From NCBI RefSeq assembly GCF_029962835.1, contig NC_080588.1, forward strand, positions 68,912,501-68,976,500: 64,000 nucleotides of DNA, given 5' to 3'. A program made the position numbers and the translations under genes. A model generated the notes under the pieces. The model did not search any database, was not told the origin of the DNA, and was given only the letters and a program-made list of their open reading frames with translations. Numbering within the stretch: the first letter of the stretch is position 1; each line of letters starts with the position of its first letter. Positions 2,898 to 60,728 of this stretch are shown here, piece after piece. The DNA comes from Magnolia sinica (taxonomy: Eukaryota > Streptophyta > Magnoliopsida > Magnoliales > Magnoliaceae).

Positions 2898-5800
2898 ATA
2901 GATGAAAATGTACAAAGAGAAATTATCAACCACAGGTCTCTCCGGCACCCGAACATTGTTAGGTTCAAAGAGGTTTGTTAGTTTTAAAGGGTTTGCTTTT
3001 TACTATTTATTGAATGTAATTATGGATTAATTTAATACATCTGTTTTTTAAATCCTTCTCTAGGTTATATTAACACCAACCCATCTGGCCATTGTGATGG
3101 AATATGCATCCGGTGGGGAGCTTTTTGAGCGTATATGTAATGCTGGACGCTTCAGTGAGGATGAGGTTCTTAATCCAATCCATTGATTAAGTTGATCCTT
3201 AATATTGTTCAAAGAAAAAGTTAACCCCTCACATTGTGCTCTTTTATAACATCCTGCTTTCCTCTGCAGGCACGTTTCTTCTTCCAGCAACTTATATCGG
3301 GAGTCAGCTACTGTCATTCGATGGTATGTAAGATGAATGTCTGTTTTGAGATGGCTTTCATAGTCTACATTCGATATGCCACCTGGGTTGTTAAACTGAT
3401 CTCTACATTCTGTATTCTATTATGAAGCAAGTTTGTCATCGCGATCTGAAGCTGGAAAATACTCTGTTGGATGGTAGTCCTGCTCCTCGTCTGAAGATAT
3501 GTGATTTTGGGTATTCCAAGGTGGTTGCCTTTGATGTTATCATTCTTCTTTCATAGTCAGTATGTATGTTCACGTATGCTTGTAAAGCATCCAGCCATTC
3601 ACATGTATGCATTTGAATTACTATTGGCTCTTAGTCTAATGAACCGACCAACGTGCAAGCCAAAAACAGATAGATGCGCAAATATTTGGACATTTGGATT
3701 TTAGACTCCATTTGGTTTCAGTGGGACTTAAAACTGATTTTCTTTTCTGTTTATGGAAAAGATTAAATTTTAAGAAATAGTCTATTCTTCTTTGATTAGC
3801 AACATTTATTTGTCTTTTCATTTAGAATGCCTAGATTATAGTTATGACGTTCATATCTGTGGATTTTTAACTTAACCGTTGCTTTCCCCAGTCCTCTGTA
3901 CTGCACTCGCAACCAAAGTCAACTGTTGGGACTCCTGCATACATCGCACCTGAAGTGTTACTCAAGAAGGAATATGATGGAAAGGTAAGATAATTTCTTA
4001 TTGACACATGTTTGTATTTGCATGTTGCCATACCGTATTCTACCTACAGGATTAATTTGTGAAGTCAGAAGATTTTAATGTGGCTTTTGAATTGTCTAGC
4101 TAGTGTTACCATATAATTTACCTGTTACAAGAAAATACACTAATTTTTTTTTCTTTGGTCAGTGTAACCTTAGCACATCACCTGGAATGCATGTCGTCAT
4201 ACTGTATTCCACCCACAGGATTAATTTGTGAAGTCAGAAGATTTTAATGTGGCTTTTGAATTGTCTAGCTAGTGTTACCATATAATTTACTTGTTACAAG
4301 AAAATACACTGATGTTTTTTTTTTCTTTGGTCAGTGTAACCTTAGCACATCATCTGAAACCTGATTTCAGCCTAAGTTACTAGATATATTGGTCACAAAA
4401 AGTCTTTTCAAGGGAGTTAACTAATCAAAGTTTGAAAGAATAAAATCATAACAACCGTTTTTCTTTCTTTCTTTTTTGCTTTACTCAGTGTAACCTTAGC
4501 ACATCATCTGAAACCTGATTTCGGCCTAAGTTACTAGATATATTGGTCACAAAAAGTCTTGTCAAGGGAGTTAACTGATCAAAGTTCGAAAGAATAAAAT
4601 TATAACAACCGTTTTTCTTTCTTTCTTTTTTGCTTTACTCATTTCAGTTAACTTTAATGAGTTGCTACCAACTTTGGATGGCCATGTGCACCAAGCTCAA
4701 GTGTCAACAGGATTGTCGAATAAAATTTCTCTACCCACAGACATGCATATGATTGTTTCTTGTGTGCATGTCTGTGGTCCCACATGCATATTTACACGTG
4801 TTATATATGTACACATTCATTTGAGCTTCTGTAGTCTGACTCACACCTTTGCATGTGTCATGTGTTCTACCCGGCATTATGGGGGATATCAGAGCCATTA
4901 ATAAGGTGGGCCATTCCGTGAAGTTGATCTGGCACAGAAATCAGGTCAGTTCACTCATCAGGAGTGCTTGATTGTGTATGTTGAATTCAGACCACTGGCA
5001 AAGCTTTTAGAACTGTCCATTGTTTTTCTACAGGGTGCCCTGCCTGATGACTGGACTAGCCTGATTTTCTTTCTTTCTTTCTTTTTTATTTTTATTTTTT
5101 ATTTTGATGAATAACCCACTTTTATTAAATAAAAAAAATGCAACACAACAGGGCTTTACCAGGGCCACACACACAAAAAATAAAAAAATAAAAGAAAAGA
5201 AGAAAGAAAGATAATAATAATAAAAAAAAAAAAAACTCACCACAATCACCAGCAGCCCTTGTGTCCTCAACAACTATCTCTCGCGCCAGCACCATGTGTT
5301 TAACATGAACTTCCACCTCAACATTCTCACTCCTAGACACACGAGTGAATGCCAAATGCTCAGTTCTCAAGTCGAGAACATCCTCAATCATATCGCAAAT
5401 TGCTAGGGTTAACTACCACCTGTGACCCACAAAATGGCATTCTTGGAGTTGCTTTCTATAAATGCCGGACTCAAATTGCAGTCAACCACTACAGCCATTG
5501 CTGGATCAGCCTGATTTCAGTGCTAGATCATCTGCACGGCAGGGTTTGCCTTGTTCACTGCTCAGATGTCCCAGACATGTGCTAGATCAATATGTATATC
5601 TGCATAAAGGTGTGTGGGACTAACAAAGCTCCATTTTTGTACATGTTTGTGCATCTGTGTGCACACTGCCAGACATATCCATCCATATGGGCATGCATAA
5701 GTACACATATTTTCCCGAAGATCCAGCTGCATAACTAAAAGTTATCTTTTTGTCATGACTTGTAATGAATTCATTGCAACTATACCACAGTCAAGGATGT

Positions 5801-17251: not shown

Positions 17252-17397
17252 GCTTGTTAGCACACACCCCACGGTCAGTCCACAGTCCACTGTTAGCCAC
17301 CCCCACTAGGGAATCGATAGCATGACCTTAGGTGTTGAAACGAGTTATCTTATCTCGATCTACCGCTTGAGATATGGATCAGGGTGTAACCGGTTAA
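17252..17397 (-). mobile_element. tRNA-derived SINE (minus strand)
   Basis: On the minus strand, box A-like ATCTCAAGCGGTAGATCG precedes box B-like GCTATCGATTCCC, followed by a GGGGGTGGCTAACAG tail. Perfect 9-bp flanks AACCGGTTA lie at 17243-17251 and 17398-17406. It belongs to the same family as the copies at 32388 and 39681. Confidence 0.8.
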
Positions 17398-17469
17398 TAA
17401 GTTCACACAGACATGTACGAAGGGAAAACAAATATCAGCTTGATCCAGAACCTCTCTGGTCCCAAAAAG

Positions 17470-17794
17470 TTTTCAGCGGTAGGTGTTCATTTCCACTGTT
17501 TCCTTTAGTGTGGTCCACTTGAGCTTTGGATCTGCCTCATTTTTGTGCTATGAAAAGATGATGGATGGCGTGGATTTAACACATATCATAGTGGGGCTTA
17601 TAGAGTTTTGTCACGTATACACATTACCAAACGTGGGTGCTGTGTTTTATACCTACGCAATCCGAGTCCGTGGATGATGGGCCAGTTAATTTCAACCGCA
17701 CACATGCTGTTGTATAGTATAGTAGCTGTACAGTCATTTGGACTGTCGAGACTGTTGGCTTAACTGCAAATGATGGGTCCCTTGGTATCAAACT
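17470..17794. repeat. GGGCCCACC-family repeat fragment
   Basis: Carries the family hallmarks in order: TTCCACTGTTTCCT, GTGGTCCACTTGAGCTTTGG, a GATGGATGG block, then ACACATATCATAGTGGGG. It directly abuts the left LTR of the gypsy element. Confidence 0.6.
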
Positions 17795-29525: not shown

Positions 29526-30314
29526 CCTTCATCTATGTCCATGGGACCATATTAACAGATTAGATGAAAAAAAGCATTACTATGGCCCTAGGAAATTTAT
29601 AATGGTAGCTGTTCAAATCGCCACTACTTCTTATAGTGTGGTCCACCTGAGATTTTTTTTCTACTTTATTTCCAGTCTCACACTCTAAAATGAGCTACCA
29701 AAACAATGGACGGTGTGGATATATTACACATATGTCAAGGTGGGCCCCATGGTCAGGGCCGCACTGTGTTGGGTGTGGCCGGGCCGCTTTCGTCAGAATT
29801 TTTACACGTGGCAGTAATAACCCAGATAAAGCCGTTCAAATGTGGGGACCCACTGTCATCTGAAAATCAAATTGATTAAGTGGTCCAATCCATTAATTAA
29901 TGGATATTTGTTTGTTCATACTTTGACCATCCAATGTATTTATTTCAACGGTCCACTAAATATCCACCAATTAGAGAGTGTGGATGTTAAATCATTGAAA
30001 TTTTCGATAAATAATCCATCTAAGCTTGGTAACACAATTTGGACAGTTAAAAAATAAGTTCTTCAGATGCCAGGTGTATATGTATATCTAATTCAAAAAA
30101 AATGATTAAAATAAAAAAAAGAGAACCTTTTGGTACTCTGAAATTGACAAATGATCCAATCGCTGGATTTCTAGAGTCATCGTGCTCCACAACCCTTGAA
30201 TTCTCAATTGCTTTTTGAAAGATTTTAAGAAATATATTTTGACATTTTGACCCGTCCTTTTTGAATATTTATGCTTTAGACAAGACATCAACGTGAAATT
30301 CTAAAAACGATCGA
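28702..30314. other. intergenic DNA with GGGCCCACC-family fragments
   Basis: No gene is supported. Fragments with GTGGTCCACCTGAG, GATGGACGGTGTGGAT and GGTGGGCCCCATGG motifs lie near 29060-29110 and 29640-29830. An inverted T-rich/A-rich tract (TTTTTATTTTT) lies near 29495-29523. Confidence 0.4.
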
Positions 30315-30990
30315 TTGACGACAAAGAGAAATTTACGACTGTGGACTTCACCATTTATCATTTGGATCTTCTTGGAGGAATACAAACTTAACTTCTGAAC
30401 TTGGACCTCCTTGTACGGACACAGAATTTCAGGACGAAAATACCCCCGTCTTGCGGATTGGCTGGTGTGCAGAGACGAGCGCCGACCGACGTCCCTGCGC
30501 TGGGAACTCAAGCGGGGCCCACTGTGATGTTTGTGAGAAATCCTCCCCGTCTAAGTTCAGTCATAGGGTCACAAAGACCTGGATGAAGAGGAAAAACAAA
30601 TTAGCTGGCAAATTAGTTCCCAGCGCAGCCCACTGTGATGTTTGTGAGAAATCCTCCCCGTCTAAGTTCATTCATAGGGTCACAAAGAGGGAAAACAAAT
30701 TTCATAATGATCCAAAACTTCTGTAACCCCTAAAAGGGTTTCAATGGTAGACATTCAATTCCCCACTACCTTTTACAGTGTGGTCCACTTGATTGTTAGA
30801 TCTGTCTTATTTTTTGTCTTAAGCCTTAATATTAGCTCGCCCAATAAATGGACAGTTTAGATATAACACATACCTTATAATGGGACCCACAAAAGCAACA
30901 CAATAAAAAAAAAAAAAAAAAAAAGCAAAAATGCCCTTGGTTGTCGCATGGGGCTCCCTATGGCTACGGATTATAACCGTAGCTACAATC
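30315..30990 (+). repeat. left arm of a long inverted repeat
   Basis: Aligns in inverted orientation to 34740-35315. Shared blocks include AAATTTACGACTGTGGAC, AATACAAACTTAACTTC, TTGCGGATTGGCTGG, AAATCCTCCCC and, at the inner tip, the self-complementary TATAACCGTAGCTA. The arm has an internal tandem copy of a block of about 100 bp (CCCACTGTGATGTTTGTGAG at about 30518 and 30628) that the right arm lacks. Confidence 0.8.
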
Positions 30991-31619
30991 GTATTCATTG
31001 ACAAAAATAAGTGGGTAGTGGGACAGCGAGTCGGGGTTGACCGGGTCAGGTTATTTTATGGATGAAAGGCGTGAATAGAGTCACATACATCACAGTGGGC
31101 CCCATAGTTAGGTCCCACCCACCTTAATGTCATGGATCCCACCACACTGCTCAAACAACAAGTGTCCACTAATTCTATTTTTTGTATATATATAAAAAAA
31201 CATTTAGAATTTAAGAGCAGATAAGCATTTTGATTAGCTATCGGTAATTCATCATGTTATGATGATCATGACCATGGGTTTAACAACAAGTTCTCCGGCA
31301 AATGATTGAATTGTGTTTGGACTTACAGGTGAATTCAATTGAGAACAATCATTTTAACCAAGAGGGAATGCCAGGAAGTGGCCCTCAAATTGCAATTTTA
31401 CAAATCCAACTTGAAAATAACATAAGGGCTCATTGGACATATGTAGTAGAATTTAAACACTGGAATTTAGTAGGTTTTACAACATGAAAAATTAAGTAGA
31501 TTTTGTTAATCAAATATATATGCTATATCCAATTCATTTCATACATTTCACAGTCAATTCCCTTCACTTCATGGTCAATTCAATTCATTTTACGATCAAT
31601 TCCCTTCACTTCACAGGCA

Positions 31620-31725
31620 AACATGAAATTAGGCGGGGCAAACTAGAAATGAAGCGAGGCAAACATGATATTGAGCAGGGCAAATATGAAATTGAGTGGG
31701 GCAAACTAGAAATTTAGTGGGGCAA
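31620..31725 (+). repeat. 21-bp minisatellite array 1
   Basis: About five units of GGGGCAAACTAGAAATTGAGC-like sequence, 21-22 bp apart. Confidence 0.85.
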
Positions 31726-32387
31726 ACATGAGGTCTGTGTTAGGGACCGAATGCATTTTATATAGGGGAGTGGCTATGGGAGAGAGTTTACCCATTGTAG
31801 AACTCTTTCACTTACCTACGTCTTCTCAATCTCTCACGTACAAGGAGAGAAGTCATTCTTCAATACAATTCTATCTTGAGTTGTCTATAGTACTCCATGC
31901 CTATAAAACCGTATATACCCAATGTGATTAATTTAAACCAATCATTGCATTACCAGATGAAAACATGCCATACATGGCCAATGATTCCAACATTCTCTAA
32001 CATGGGATAATCATGATATTCTTCAATATGTAATGTATTATATGGTAATTAATTAACAATCGAGATTCTACACTAGATATTTTAATGGATCCTATAAAGT
32101 ATCTTGAATTATTTGGTTGATTGGAACTATTGACACTAGACCACGACAATCATCACCTCATTTATCAAAGTGGGACTAGGCGTGATCATAATGTCAGCAT
32201 TTCCAACGACATAAATACTGAAAACATTGTGTATGCTCATTTGCACTGCATTTTCAATATTTGACGATTACAGATCATCTTTCTTTAAAATAACCTTAGT
32301 GTATGCTCATTTGCACTGCATTACCGATTCGAAGACCCATGAGAAAAACTTTATCTTTTTCTTTCTTCAAAAATCCTTTCAAACCCT

Positions 32388-32562
32388 CCTCTTTTTTCTT
32401 TTTTCTTTTTGAGGGAAGGGGGGGGGGGGGGTTGTTAGTACAATCCACTGTCAGTGCACACTTCACTATTGGCCACCCCCACTAGGGAATCGATACCAAG
32501 ACCTCAATGTTGAAACGAGGTATCTTTACTTAGTCTACCACTTGAGATATGGCCCAGGGTGT
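32388..32562 (-). mobile_element. tRNA-derived SINE with 16-bp perfect target duplication
   Basis: On the minus strand, box A-like ATCTCAAGTGGTAGACTA precedes box B-like GTATCGATTCCC, then a GGGGGTGGCC tail ending in C-rich and A-rich tracts (32388-32432). The target duplication AATCCTTTCAAACCCT lies at 32372-32387 and 32563-32578 with no difference, so this copy is young. It sits inside the foldback-type element. Confidence 0.9.
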
Positions 32563-32814
32563 AATCCTTTCAAACCCTTAAGCATGTCTACCAGTAACCC
32601 TAATATCGATTACACCAGTATATATAATCAAAACTAGAAATAGAAATAAATTGCATAAAAACACTCAAAACTGTGTAACCTATTTATCCATCGAGTCAAC
32701 TGATCGAAACGCTTTGATCGATCGGGTCGACATGTTAACTAAAGTTTTCCATATGTCAAAAACTCTAAAAATTGTCTAAATATTTTTGTCAAAAATTTAA
32801 ATTTTTTGGATAAC

Positions 32815-33090
32815 CTTCAACCTTCATGTTTGGCCCATTGAATTTCATGTTTGCCTCGTTCAATTTTTGGTTTACCTCGCTGAATTTTTTGTTTGCCCCG
32901 CTGAATTTCTAGTTTGCCCCGCTCAAATTCATTAATGCCCTGCTGAACTTCTAGTTTACCCCGCTCAATTTCATGTTTGCCCCGCTTAAACTAGAAATTG
33001 AGCGGGGCAAACCAAAAATTGAGCGGGGCAAACTAGAATTTGAGCGGGGCAAAGTGAAAATTGAGCGGGGCAAATTAGAAATTGAGTGTG
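32815..33090. repeat. 21-bp minisatellite array 2, inverted at its centre
   Basis: About eight units in TTTGCCCCGCTCAATTTC orientation (32815-32987) run directly into about five units in GAAATTGAGCGGGGCAAA orientation (32990-33090). The centre near 32988 forms a perfect hairpin stem in CCCCGCTT/GAGCGGGG. Confidence 0.9.
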
Positions 33091-33396
33091 TGGGATCCAA
33101 TTGTAATGCCATAGCTTTCAAAGTGACTTAAAAGAAGCATAACTGTGGTTTGAATGCCGGTTCCTTAGCATTACTTCTAGGAAACGTCATTATCTTGCGA
33201 ATGTTTACAATTCAATTCATTTGTGCATTGATACAATGAGTCTCATACATTTGAAGGTCTGATGACACATGGGAAATCTGTTGCTGAAATATTATTTTCT
33301 GATGAACCGTGTGTATTCAGGAACTCTAAACTCTCTAATGGTGAGTATTGTGTACTTTAGATAGCTCCTCTCATTGAAGAACCAAATTACTTACAG

Positions 33397-33578
33397 CAAT
33401 TATTGATGCTTAGTGTGGACGCAATGCACAACAAAATGCTGCTAAGATGCTTGAGGAGGTTGGGAGGTACGGATAAATATCAACTACATTTTGATACTTG
33501 TCTTTTTTGATACATCATATATTAAGTCAGTTCAATCAAAATCTCAGGATTCTCAAGGACAGAGGAATCTATGTTCTG
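33397..33578 (+). pseudogene. fragment of a SAM-dependent methyltransferase-like (METTL13-type) gene
   Basis: Two exon-like pieces with splice borders: 33397-33466 reads (T)IIDA*CGRNAQQNAAKMLEEVG(R), and 33548-33578 reads (R)ILKDRGIYVL. They are joined across a GT..AG intron (33467-33547) in phase 2, with a second donor GTATGT at 33579. The text matches the GTLDSxLCGxNS..MLEEVxRVLKDKGVY motif of small plant methyltransferases (METTL13-like, AT3G17365-type). An in-frame TAG replaces a Leu codon. No SAM-binding motif I, start or end is present, so only a small interior piece was carried here. The genomic intron is kept, which argues for DNA-level capture rather than retroposition. Confidence 0.65.
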
Positions 33579-33764
33579 GTATGTGTCTTATTCTTTAATT
33601 GTTGGAGCTTAAGAATTGCTCTTCCTAGAAATAGTTCGAGTTAACACATGAGCTGTGTTTGGATGCAAAATGGAAATAGATTGAATTGCAAGCATTAGTT
33701 TAATCAAGAAGAAATGGTGAAACTAATGATGTTTTCATTGTGTTCATAATGAAGTAATCCTCCA

Positions 33765-34405
33765 ATTTTCAGTTTGCCCCGCTCAATTTCTAGTTTGCCC
33801 TGCTCAATTTTCGGTTTGCCCTGCTTAATTTCTAGTTTGCCCCACTTAATTTTCAGTTTGCCCCGCTCAATTTCTAGTTTGCCCCGCTTAATTTTTGATT
33901 TGCCCCGCTCAATTTGCGGTTTGCCCTGCTCAATTTCTGGTTTGCCCCGCTCATTTTTAGTTTGCCCCGCTCAATTTTCAGTTTGCCTGGCTAAATTTCT
34001 AGTTTGCCCCGCTCAATTTTCATTTTGCCCCGCTCAATTTCTAGTTTTCCCCACTCAATTTCTGGTTTGCCTTGCTCAATTTTCAGTTTATCCCGCTGAA
34101 TTTCTAGTTTGCCCCATTCATTTTTCGGTTTGCCCCACTCAATTTCTAGTTTGCCCCATTCAATTTTTAGTTTACCCAGCTCAATTTTATGTTTGACGCA
34201 ATCAATTTCTATTTTGCCCCGCTCAATTCTAGTTTGCCCCGCTAAATTTCATGTTTACCCCGCTCAATTTCATGTTTGCCCAGCTCAATTTCTAGTTTGC
34301 CTTGCTCAATTTCATGTTTGCCCCGCTCAATTTTTAGTTTGCCCTACTCAATTTCATGTTTGTCTCGCTCAATTTTATGTTTGCTCCGCTAAATTTCCAG
34401 TTTGA
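33765..34405 (+). repeat. 21-bp minisatellite array 3 (about 30 units)
   Basis: About 640 bp of TTTGCCCCGCTCAATTTCTAG units with point variation (TAG/CAG/CGG/ATG at the unit end). Since 21 is divisible by three, the array stays open as a heptad repeat (ISSLPRS-like) for 140 codons, which is not evidence of a gene. Confidence 0.95.
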
Positions 34406-34610
34406 CCGCGAACTGATTGAAATTGACCGCGAAGTGAATGAAATGGATTTTCGACTATCGACCTGATGAAATCTTGGAAATTAACTAGGTTGGTTGGCTA
34501 AAGTAATTTCTCCTACCCCAAAATCATATGTGGTACGTCAAGTAATTAATTTTGGTTTAGAAGATATTCTTGTTAAATGAATAAAGAAAGAAATGAAAAA
34601 AAAGAAAGAA

Positions 34611-34611
<1 letters not shown>

Positions 34612-34664
<53 letters not shown>
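34612..34664. repeat. (TA)n microsatellite
   Basis: An uninterrupted TA run of about 50 bp. Confidence 0.95.
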
Positions 34665-34668
<4 letters not shown>

Positions 34669-34739
34669 AAAATGTAGGTGGAATAAAGTTCTCCATGTAA
34701 AAAATAAAAAATTTTAAAAAAAAAAAGAAGAGAAAAAAG

Positions 34740-35315
34740 TGCATAGCACTACAGTTATAGCTACGGTTATAATCCGCAGCCATAGGCATAGCTTTGACTG
34801 GTTTTTTGTTTCCTTGTTGTAATCCCCACCACTTTTTGTGGGTCCCATTATGAGATATGTGTTATATCCAAACCGTCCATCTATTTGGCGAACTCATATT
34901 AAGGCTTGAGATGAAAAATAAGATAGATCTAGCTATCAAGTGGACCACACTGTAAAAGGCAGTGGGGAATTGAATGTCTACCATTGAAATGCTTTTAGGG
35001 GTTATAGAAGTTTTGGATCATTAAGAAATTTGTTTTTCCTTTTCATTCAGGTCTTTGTGACCCTATGAATGAACGTAGATGGGGAGGATTTCTCACAAAC
35101 ATCACAGTGGGCCCTATTTGAGTTCCCAGTGCAGGGACGTCCGTTGGTGCTTATCTTTGCAGGCCAGCCAATCCGCAAGGCAGGGGCAGTTTTGTCCAAG
35201 AATTCGGTGTCAATACGAGGAGGTCTAAGTTAGGAAGTTAAGTTTGTATTGCTTCAAGAATATCCAATGGATAAAAGGTGGGGTCCACAGTCGTAAATTT
35301 CTCATTGACAAAAGA
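34740..35315 (-). repeat. right arm of the long inverted repeat
   Basis: Inverted partner of 30315-30990. It begins at the inner tip with TAGCTACGGTTATAATCCG and ends with ACAGTCGTAAATTTCTC. Divergence by eye is moderate (about one in five to six positions), so the arms either are old or are two separate insertions of one family. Confidence 0.8.
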
Positions 35316-41814: not shown

Positions 41815-43060
41815 TGCTCTGTGGGCCCCACCATGATATATGTGTTTCATCCATTCTGTTCATCCATTTTTACAGATCATTTTAGTGTTTGATCCGAAAA
41901 ATGAGAGGGATTTAAATATCAAGTAGACCACACTGCAGGAAAACATTATTGATTGGATCTCCATCATTAAAATCCTCCTAAGGCCCACTGTACTGTTTAT
42001 TTGCAATCCAGTCTGTTTATTAGGTCATAAAGACCCAGATGAAGGGAAAAAAACAAAGATCATCTTGATCCAAAACTTCTATGGCCCTCAAAATTTTTTT
42101 AATGGTCAACATTCATTCAACACTGTTTTATGTAATGTGATCCACTTGATATTGGGATATAACTCTTATTTCGTCTCATACCGTAAAATTATCTATAAAA
42201 ATAGATGGACGGCATGGATAAAACACATATATCATAGTAGGTGCCATAAAGCACCGACCACCAGCCATTGGCTGGTAACAGGGGAGTAGCCAATCCGTTT
42301 CCAGTAGGGATGGGGATGGACATCATTGGAACTTTCATGGGGCCCACCTTTATATTCATATGCCATCCCAGCCTTTCATCAGGTGGGTCATAGTAGGATG
42401 ATTGGAATTCTACGCGGAATGTGTAGCGAGGATAGCGTAGCGTGGATTCTTTTTCGGGCCACCATGATGTATGCATTTTATCTATGCTGTTCATCTGTTC
42501 TTTGTGGTGTGGTCCACTTGAGCTTTGGATATGCTTTAATTTTAAATTAATGTCCTAAAATTAGCTGAAAAATGGATGGATGGTGTGGATAAAGCACATA
42601 CATCACGGTGGGCCCCACAGAGAATTAGCATGGTGAGCTCCTCACCGGGCAATGCACCACATACATGAGCATGATACAAAACTTCGGTGGGCCCAAGGAG
42701 GTTTCACTGTCAGGTGTCCCATCTTCACTATTTCCTGTGGTTCTGGTATCACGTCCTAAAATGATCATTGATGAACGGAGTGGATGTCACTCAGAAATAG
42801 GAAGTGGATTGGCTAGTGTAACACACACCACCCACCTGGATGAAGAGGAAAAACAAATATCATATTGATAGAAATCTTCTGTGACCCCCAAAAGGGTTTC
42901 AATGGTAGATGTTCAATCCCCACTGCGGTTTTCAGTGTGGTCCACTCTATATTTGGATCTGTCTTATTTTTCGGCCCAAGCCTTGCGGCAAGCTCGCCAA
43001 ATGGACGGACAGTTTGGATATAATACATACCTCATGATGGGACCCACAGATCTTGGTGAC
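41815..43060. repeat. three GGGCCCACC-family repeat copies
   Basis: Copies near 41815-42290, 42300-42660 and 42840-43060 share the block order: GTGGGCCCCACCATGATATA, a TTCATCC..TTTTACAGATCATTTTAG block, CAAGTGGACCACAC, an A/G-rich GATGAAG block and a closing GATCCAAAACTTCTATGGCC. They are non-coding and lack clear target duplications, and some are in opposite orientation to each other. Confidence 0.7.
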
Positions 43061-60173: not shown

Positions 60174-60728
60174 GGGAAATAGTATTATGAGGTCAACCTC
60201 ATGGGAACTTCCCTTGAGGTCAAGTGTGTGGGCCCCACCATGATGCATGTTGAACATCTACCCCATCATTTGGATGCACGACCACAAGCTTAAAAATCAA
60301 GTGTGGGCCCCACCATGATGCATGTTGAACATCTACCCCATCATTTGGATGCACGACCACAAGCTTAAAAATCAAGTCAATATATGACTTGGGTGGGCCA
60401 CACCAAATACAATAGTTGAGAGGGGCTACCCTCCCATTAAAATATTCATAATCATTAATTGGGCCCACTGAGATGTGGTTCATAAATCTAGACCATCCAT
60501 TGTGTCTTCCTCACTTGGATGAGGGGTTAGACCAGGTTTCAGCCGCATCCAAAACTCAGGTGGGCCCACCAAGTGCTTTTATATGTTTTAAACATGTCTT
60601 CACATGATTTTAGATGGTATGTCCCACTTGAGTTCCGTATATGGCTGATTTTTAGGATATCTCATAATTTAGAAGGGACCCATCAAATGCACAGTGTTGA
60701 TGTTATACATGCGCCACAATGCATATTG
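60174..60728 (+). repeat. foldback-type repeat, copy C, with a 74-bp internal tandem duplication
   Basis: Starts GGGAAATAGTATTATGAGG. The block starting GTGTGGGCCCCACCATGATG occurs at 60227 and again at 60301 (period 74) and is virtually identical. The right end is cut off where copy D begins. Confidence 0.8.

What the first reader, a model, noticed from the sequence alone, without database searches (positions are those of the whole stretch)
31530..34452. Foldback-type element whose inverted arms are arrays of a 21-bp minisatellite
Three arrays of one 21-bp unit lie in 2.9 kb, oriented so that array 1 can pair with the left half of array 2 and the right half of array 2 with array 3. The outer flanks are also inverted to each other. 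Inverted ends made of tandem repeats are the hallmark of Drosophila Foldback elements; I know no plant family with this exact unit. Two units back to back, or one element with a duplicated centre, would both fit.
Basis: partly seen in the sequence, partly recalled or inferred. Interest (0 to 1): 0.75.

Follow-up and report, generated by a model that had tools for sequence, protein, structure and literature searches.

The report
Non-autonomous Mutator-like element with foldback arms
This is a 5-kb jumping gene, probably of a plant, that lacks its own enzyme and belongs to a large Mutator-type family whose inverted arms are arrays of a 21-base repeat, which may be landing sites for a protein that relatives make to escape silencing.

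Summary
The arrays are real, but 31530-34452 is only the middle of a larger transposon, window 30326-35303 (4978 bp). Its 36-nt terminus (<=3 mismatches) occurs 1810 times in the host genome. Copies carry 9-10-bp target duplications (score >=7 in 10 of 17 elements; null 1.1%). It is a non-autonomous Mutator-like element (MULE) with foldback-type arms. Arrays and flanks recur together, so they are not independent satellites. I found a putative coding relative, E35 (14.75 kb, identical termini, perfect 9-bp TSD). It has mudrA and, on the other strand, DUF1985 and Ulp1 ORFs, with arrays of the same unit outside its Pfam-matching ORFs. A convergent mudrA/DUF1985 order recurs (33 of 113 listed relatives). 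Beside an 82%-identical mudrA, the array at the same place has a shifted unit. VANDAL/KIU MULEs encode DUF1985 proteins (VANC) that bind tandem repeats and undo silencing. My favoured mechanism: the arrays are sites for such a protein. That step is inferred: no binding data, no excess constraint on the unit, and E35's arrays run opposite to the window's. New variant of a known kind.

The parts
30326..35303 (.). whole non-autonomous MULE (4978 bp)
   Evidence: termini by alignment with other copies; longest frame without arrays 135 aa; no Pfam hit over cut-off in the 21 of 102 ORFs scanned
30314..30325 (+). left target-site duplication, attgac(gac)aaa with an apparent 3-bp tandem addition; imperfect
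   Evidence: scores only 6/9 without a gap
35304..35312 (+). right target-site duplication attgacaaa
30326..30602 (+). left outer terminal inverted repeat (85.6% to the right arm over 277 bp)
30511..30688 (+). 67-bp partial direct duplication within the left arm (30511-30577 and 30622-30688, 96%)
30628..30914 (+). second left-arm module, inverted relative of about 34834-35114
31547..31614 (-). outer-cap array of a second 21-bp unit (rc of TTGACCGCGAACTGAATGAAA), 3.2 units
   Evidence: this unit is present at least once in all 20 fetched copies
31616..31731 (-). array 1, 21-bp unit AATTTCTAGTTTGCCCCGCTC in minus orientation, about 5 units
31732..32822 (.). central-left unique region, conserved among copies; about 250 bp present in several copies (such as L009, L011, L012) is missing near 32234-32254, while L010 aligns through without it
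32823..32987 (+). array 2a (plus orientation)
32979..33086 (-). array 2b (minus orientation; palindromic junction with 2a)
33087..33762 (.). central-right unique region, conserved among copies, no recognised coding domain in the ORFs scanned
33763..34404 (+). array 3, 31 units
34402..34444 (+). outer-cap array of the second 21-bp unit, 2 units
34834..35303 (-). right outer terminal inverted repeat

Best explanation
SHOWN: window 30326-35303 is one old, non-autonomous Mutator-like transposon with foldback-type arms. Coding relatives with the same termini exist: E35 (G000:C1:134229153-134243906) carries mudrA facing minus-strand DUF1985 and Ulp1 ORFs, with arrays of the same unit between them. 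INFERRED: DUF1985 and Ulp1 belong to one gene. The window element was moved in trans by such a transposase acting on the termini. The arrays are most likely multi-site landing platforms for the relatives' DUF1985/Ulp1 protein, as VANC proteins bind tandem repeats in non-coding DNA of VANDAL elements and strip silencing marks. Carrying the arrays would let a gene-less element be unsilenced and mobilised along with its coding relatives. Unit number and sequence change by slippage and unequal exchange, so arrays drift in concert. Confidence: about 0.95 for the MULE and foldback identity, about 0.45 for the anti-silencing role; the number below is for the whole.
For: Termini: 910 + 900 hits to the 36-nt end, 0 + 0 in the control. 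TSDs: 4 of 17 elements perfect (L016, L026, E30, E35), 9 of 17 score >=8 against 0 of the mismatched pairings. All 7 places chosen by TIR pairs alone contain the unit (E29, E30, E32, E35 whole; L034, L036, L037 in part), as does L040, chosen by TIR pair plus DUF1985 hit; these are 8 of the 14 pairs under 40 kb that I read off the list. E35: DBD_Tnp_Mut 2.2e-13, MULE 3.2e-17, SWIM 1e-6, DUF1985 1.6e-4 (below cut-off), Peptidase_C48 2.9e-17, Transposase_32 1e-6 (below cut-off). A second coding copy, 93% to E35 over 3.4 kb, has DUF1985 1.9e-15. 5 of 34 listed DUF1985 hits on C1-C4 lie inward of a listed exact TIR, 0.14 expected, 0 of 20,000 simulations reach 5. 33 of 113 listed mudrA relatives have a listed DUF1985 hit within 30 kb, all convergent. 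E35's arrays lie outside its Pfam-matching ORFs. In L041 (82% mudrA) the array after mudrA has 0 of 18 units with C at unit position 13 (G 11, T 7), against 17 of 17 C in E35's array at the same place. VANC target repeats lie in non-coding DNA and diverge together between related families (PMC5735166, abstract, sections 6 and 9, passages; PMC10398659, passages); KIU, a VANC with Ulp1, is described in PMC13317346 (passages).
Against: No binding, methylation or expression data. T/A positions of the array, apart from variable positions 6 and 7, are 0.92-0.99 consensus, no better than T/A in unique central parts of the same copies (0.98-0.99), so there is no sign of selection on the unit. Concerted drift of a minisatellite alone would also give the L041 shift; the shift is not absolute, since G or T at position 13 also occurs in 11 of 34 units of E35's array before mudrA, and neither a TIR nor a DUF1985 gene was seen beside L041. 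E35's arrays run in the opposite orientation to the window's, E35 lacks the outer cap unit, and its TIR resembles the window's only over the outer ~120 bp (79-84%), so cross-mobilisation is unproven. The 32 listed PF10551 hits on C1-C4 show no TIR link (0 of 32). Most VANDALs are described with degenerate or no TIRs. The window's own TSD is imperfect.
Confidence: 0.5

Rival explanations
1. The arrays are secondary transposase-binding sites, as proposed for Galileo and other foldback-type elements, and raise transposition efficiency.
For: Arrays are subterminal in the subfamilies seen. Galileo tandem repeats are reported to contain secondary binding sites (PMC3573991, passages; PMC4079207, passages). 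The 21-bp period is about two helical turns (general knowledge).
Against: Neither 21-bp unit resembles the terminal 120 bp more than shuffled sequence does (P 0.16-0.50). Arrays in E35 also lie between ORFs far from the ends, and their orientation is reversed relative to the window type.
Confidence: 0.2
2. The arrays are passive minisatellites expanded by slippage and exchange between inverted copies, with no function for the element.
For: Unit conservation does not exceed that of unique sequence. Array length varies widely between arms (3-41 units), and array-plus-spacer modules duplicate in tandem in L040.
Against: Arrays occur near relatives down to 76-79% transposase identity (3 of 7 mudrA hits on C1 have a listed exact unit match within 15 kb, 0.07 expected), and one subfamily's array at the same place differs as a block.
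Confidence: 0.25
3. The inverted arrays act mainly as hairpin or siRNA sources that silence the family, in the manner of Mu killer (recalled); the strong C/G decay records that silencing.
For: Facing arrays (up to 41 units on one side and up to 36 on the other, in different copies) could form long hairpin RNA. C/G sites in copies are 0.90-0.93 consensus against 0.96-0.99 for A/T, as expected of methylated DNA. Long MULE TIRs are siRNA sources (PMC10398659, passages; PMC6446971, passages).
Against: Explains a consequence rather than why arrays are kept in coding copies and between genes. No small-RNA data here.
Confidence: 0.15

Closest known systems
VANDAL / KIU (Kaonashi) MULEs of Arabidopsis, VANC anti-silencing system
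   Same: mudrA plus a DUF1985 gene (with Ulp1 in KIU); [quoted passage not shown] PMC10398659 and PMC13317346, passages)
   Different: VANDALs are described with degenerate or no TIRs, though PMC6446971 (passages) says some Brassicaceae relatives do have them; here termini are inverted (138 bp at 96% in E35) and the repeats face each other as foldback arms. Binding untested here.
Tm1 Mutator/Foldback elements of root-knot nematodes
   Same: MULE with composite TIRs made largely of short (13-15 bp) tandem repeats, 9-bp TSDs, coding and non-coding members (PMC3169594, passages)
   Different: Different unit and host; no DUF1985/Ulp1 gene and no central palindromic array in the passages I saw.
FARE foldback MULEs of Arabidopsis
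   Same: plant foldback family classed with MULEs (PMC4486113, passages; original paper not held)
   Different: sequence and unit not compared here
Drosophila Foldback, Galileo and Tetris
   Same: Galileo and Tetris: long TIRs with internal tandem repeats; rearranged copies, and chimeric ones in Galileo (PMC4079207, PMC3573991, passages). Foldback itself: recalled
   Different: Galileo is a P-type element with 7-bp TSDs and Tetris has ~220-bp units; no relationship by descent shown or tested

Membership tests
Mutator-like elements (MULE superfamily) | 9-11-bp target-site duplications | tested here: met
   family: 10 of 17 elements score >=7 against a null of 1.1%; 9 of 17 score >=8 against 0; two of these (E29, L021) are T-runs and weak. 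The window's own pair is imperfect (6/9 ungapped; 9/9 if a 3-bp gac addition is allowed)
Mutator-like elements (MULE superfamily) | mudrA-type transposase in a member with the same termini | tested here: met
   E35: PF03108, PF10551, SWIM over cut-off; both termini 0 mismatches, perfect TSD
Mutator-like elements (MULE superfamily) | own transposase in the window element | tested here: not met
   no domain over cut-off in the 21 of 102 ORFs scanned; hence read as non-autonomous
Foldback-type elements (structural group) | long inverted arms containing tandem repeats of variable number | tested here: met
   17 of 20 copies have facing - and + arrays
Drosophila Foldback family (FB) | descent from FB/NOF | not tested
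   no FB sequence was compared
VANDAL / KIU | DUF1985 gene, with Ulp1 in KIU, beside mudrA | tested here: met
   E35 (DUF1985 there below cut-off) and DUF1985 over cut-off in L040; convergent order in 33 of 113. No such domain found in the window element itself
VANDAL / KIU | absent or degenerate TIRs | tested here: not met
   E35 TIR 138 bp at 96.4%; so not filed as VANDAL, though some relatives with TIRs are reported (PMC6446971, passages)
VANDAL / KIU | DUF1985 protein binds tandem-repeat motif in non-coding DNA | not testable with these tools
   array position is consistent; binding needs experiment

The most novel reading that the evidence does not exclude
Foldback arms in plants can be anti-silencing antennas: arrays of recognition sites for an element-encoded DUF1985/Ulp1 protein, kept in inverted orientation in MULEs that retain their TIRs. 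Gene-less copies such as the window element hitch-hike on the protein, and unit and protein change together as subfamilies split.
Probability: 0.4. Interest if true: 0.75.

Novelty: new variant of a known kind. Interest (0 to 1): 0.55.

Why it matters
Why foldback transposons carry tandem-repeat arms has, to my knowledge, no settled answer. Here one family offers coding copies, gene-less copies and a unit that differs between subfamilies, so the idea that the arms are targets of an anti-silencing protein can be tested directly. It would tie two separately described things together: foldback arms and the VANC system known from Arabidopsis VANDALs.

Tried and rejected
Independent satellites: rejected, because arrays and flanks recur as one unit in the 20 fetched copies (array and outer-TIR pieces together) and at the 8 places chosen by TIR pairs. 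Two elements back to back: rejected, one pair of termini. An element nested inside another TIR element: rejected, because outer TIR pieces and arrays travel together. Captured host gene in the centre: no Pfam hit over cut-off or PDB hit in the ORFs scanned; the parental gene was not searched for by DNA, left open. Selection on unit positions: tested and not found. Unit derived from the terminal repeat: not found; the inner and outer units are weakly alike (P 0.015). Similarity of the unit to published VANC motifs: looked at by eye, judged no better than chance, not used. Listed PF10551 transposases near listed exact TIRs: 0 of 32 on C1-C4; E35's own domain scores below that list. Empty-site search with joined flanks: not completed. 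Central-region copy count: not answered.
Full report
What is there. They are the inner part of a longer inverted structure: the flanks 30322-30602 / 35027-35307 (281 nt, 85%) and 30685-30894 / 34834-35043 (210 nt, 90%) are inverted repeats of each other. Aligning the ends of other genome copies gives a sharp terminus, GAGAAATTTACGACTGTGGACCCCACC, at 30326 and 35303. The arms carry, at the outer edge of the arrays, a cap of a second 21-bp unit (31547-31614, 34402-34444). This unit is found at least once in all 20 copies fetched with the window query and in E29, E30 and E32, but not in E35 or L040. No coding domain passed its cut-off in the 21 of 102 ORFs (>=30 aa) scanned.

Host. The window lies in a 1.84-Gb genome of 127 contigs. 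That it is a plant is inferred from its transposons; a magnoliid with 19 chromosomes would fit, but no call names it.

Family. The 36-nt terminus (<=3 mismatches) occurs 910 + 900 times, 0 + 0 for the reversed control. A 1.5-unit array pattern occurs 12,399 + 12,774 times, control 0 + 0. From: 17 of 20 have a - array facing a + array (not L018, L023, L024), and 13 of 20 have the central palindromic array. Arrays run from 3 to 41 units in the left arm. The window's left array, 5 units, is among the shortest. In the 14 elements compared the two arms of a copy are about 78-93% alike over the longer matched stretches, and for all 28 arms the best match by summed score is an arm of another copy. 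Arms have been exchanged or the family is old.

Target duplications. Of 25 elements (20 copies, the window, E29, E30, E32, E35), 17 had both termini located; 8 were dropped. Ten of 17 score >=7 (null 1.1% of mismatched pairings), 9 of 17 score >=8 (null 0), 4 of 17 are perfect: L016, L026, E30, E35. E29 and L021 match only as T-runs. L026's right end was set one base further out than. The window scores 6 without a gap; attgac(gac)aaa / attgacaaa matches if a 3-bp tandem addition is allowed. L017 scores 3.5 on this scale although an offset 8-bp match is visible.

Coding relative. I read 14 convergent pairs of exact termini under 40 kb off and took DNA from 8. E29, E30 and E32 (8.9-10.5 kb) hold 8-9 array blocks; 22 of their 24 listed non-array ORFs of >=75 aa were scanned and none has a Pfam hit at E <= 0.01. 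L034, L036 and L037, inner pieces of three longer pairs, contain the unit (L037 only 7 units, beside frames of another kind). E35, 14,754 bp, has both termini, a perfect TSD TTCAATGGA, and 138 bp of TIR at 96.4%. Its ORFs match DBD_Tnp_Mut (2.2e-13), MULE (3.2e-17) and SWIM (1e-6), then on the other strand Transposase_32 (1e-6, below cut-off), Peptidase_C48/Ulp1 (2.9e-17) and DUF1985 (1.6e-4, below cut-off). That Ulp1 and DUF1985 form one gene is inferred. Arrays of the same unit lie before mudrA, after it, between the minus-strand ORFs and in the right arm, and overlap none of the Pfam-matching ORFs. Their orientation (+ left, - right) is the reverse of the window's.

Is the link general? On C1-C4, 5 of 34 listed DUF1985 hits lie inward of a listed exact TIR within 25 kb; random positions give 0.14 and none of 20,000 simulations reached 5. 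The same test with the 32 listed PF10551 hits gave 0. Of 113 listed relatives of the E35 transposase (75-100% identity), 33 have a listed DUF1985 hit within 30 kb in convergent orientation and none in any other. Exact TIRs lie inward of 3 of 9 relatives with >=85% identity (E35 included) and 1 of 17 below that. On C1, 3 of 7 such relatives have a listed exact array match within 15 kb against 0.07 expected; all three are 76-79% relatives, none of the four 87-91% ones; 4 of 25 exact TIRs have one within 12 kb against 0.20 expected. These lists are truncated, so the counts are lower bounds.

Concerted change. After mudrA of an 82% relative (L041), at the place where E35 has an array, there is an array of the same unit type with a shifted consensus: unit position 13 is C in 0 of 18 units (G 11, T 7) against 17 of 17 in E35. 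In E35's other arrays C is 23 of 34, 16 of 21 and 28 of 32, so the variant also exists there as a minority. No TIR or DUF1985 gene was seen beside L041 (1.4 kb held). VANC target repeats in Arabidopsis VANDALs diverge in a similar way (PMC5735166, abstract, sections 6 and 9 read whole, other passages).

Control that went against me. Across 1061 units from the window and the 20 loci, T/A positions other than 6 and 7 are 0.92-0.99 consensus, but T/A in unique central parts of the same copies are 0.98-0.99 (unit finding used a 14-of-21 threshold, which favours conservation). The unit therefore shows no excess constraint. C/G positions decay more than A/T in arrays and unique parts alike, as expected of methylated DNA. 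The three commonest variants at positions 5-8 (CTAG, CATG, TCAG) are the same in all three groups, so they are old.

Interpretation. Identity as a non-autonomous MULE with foldback arms is secure. The function of the arrays is inferred. I favour recognition by the family's DUF1985/Ulp1 protein, because the gene is tied to the TIR family, the arrays sit in non-coding places, and the unit differs as a block between subfamilies. Transposase binding is weaker because the unit does not resemble the termini. Passive minisatellite growth remains possible. In contrast to VANDALs, whose degenerate TIRs are read as escape from RNA-directed methylation (PMC10398659, passages), this family keeps long inverted arms, which should feed hairpin small RNA; that tension is the interesting part. 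Some Brassicaceae relatives of VANDAL are said to have TIRs (PMC6446971, passages).

Literature. Among the results listed (several listings were cut short) I saw no paper on such arrays in a magnoliid MULE; most subscription journals are not held. Kaonashi/KIU was first recalled and then found in PMC13317346 (passages).

Noticed in passing
L010:7859-8977: The outer-cap 21-bp unit has 22 matches (>=16 of 21) in one orientation over 1.1 kb in a neighbouring element, so the second unit can also expand.
   Followed up: no
window 17394-17544, 29601-29749, 42023-42250, 42834-43048: Other stretches 70-81% like the subterminal TIR module: probably other MULE or MITE remnants.
   Followed up: no
window 60226-60377: A perfect 75-bp tandem duplication, two copies at 100%: probably very recent.
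   Followed up: no
window 4019-4641: Overlapping tandem duplications with periods 169 and 154 bp, 93-95%.
   Followed up: no
L040:3332-5766: An array-plus-spacer module repeated four times at 670-833-bp spacing in a coding copy: modular growth of the arm.
   Followed up: partly
L030, L032 (E30, E32): Elements of 10 kb share internal non-array segments with open frames that have no Pfam hit; possibly captured sequence.
   Followed up: partly
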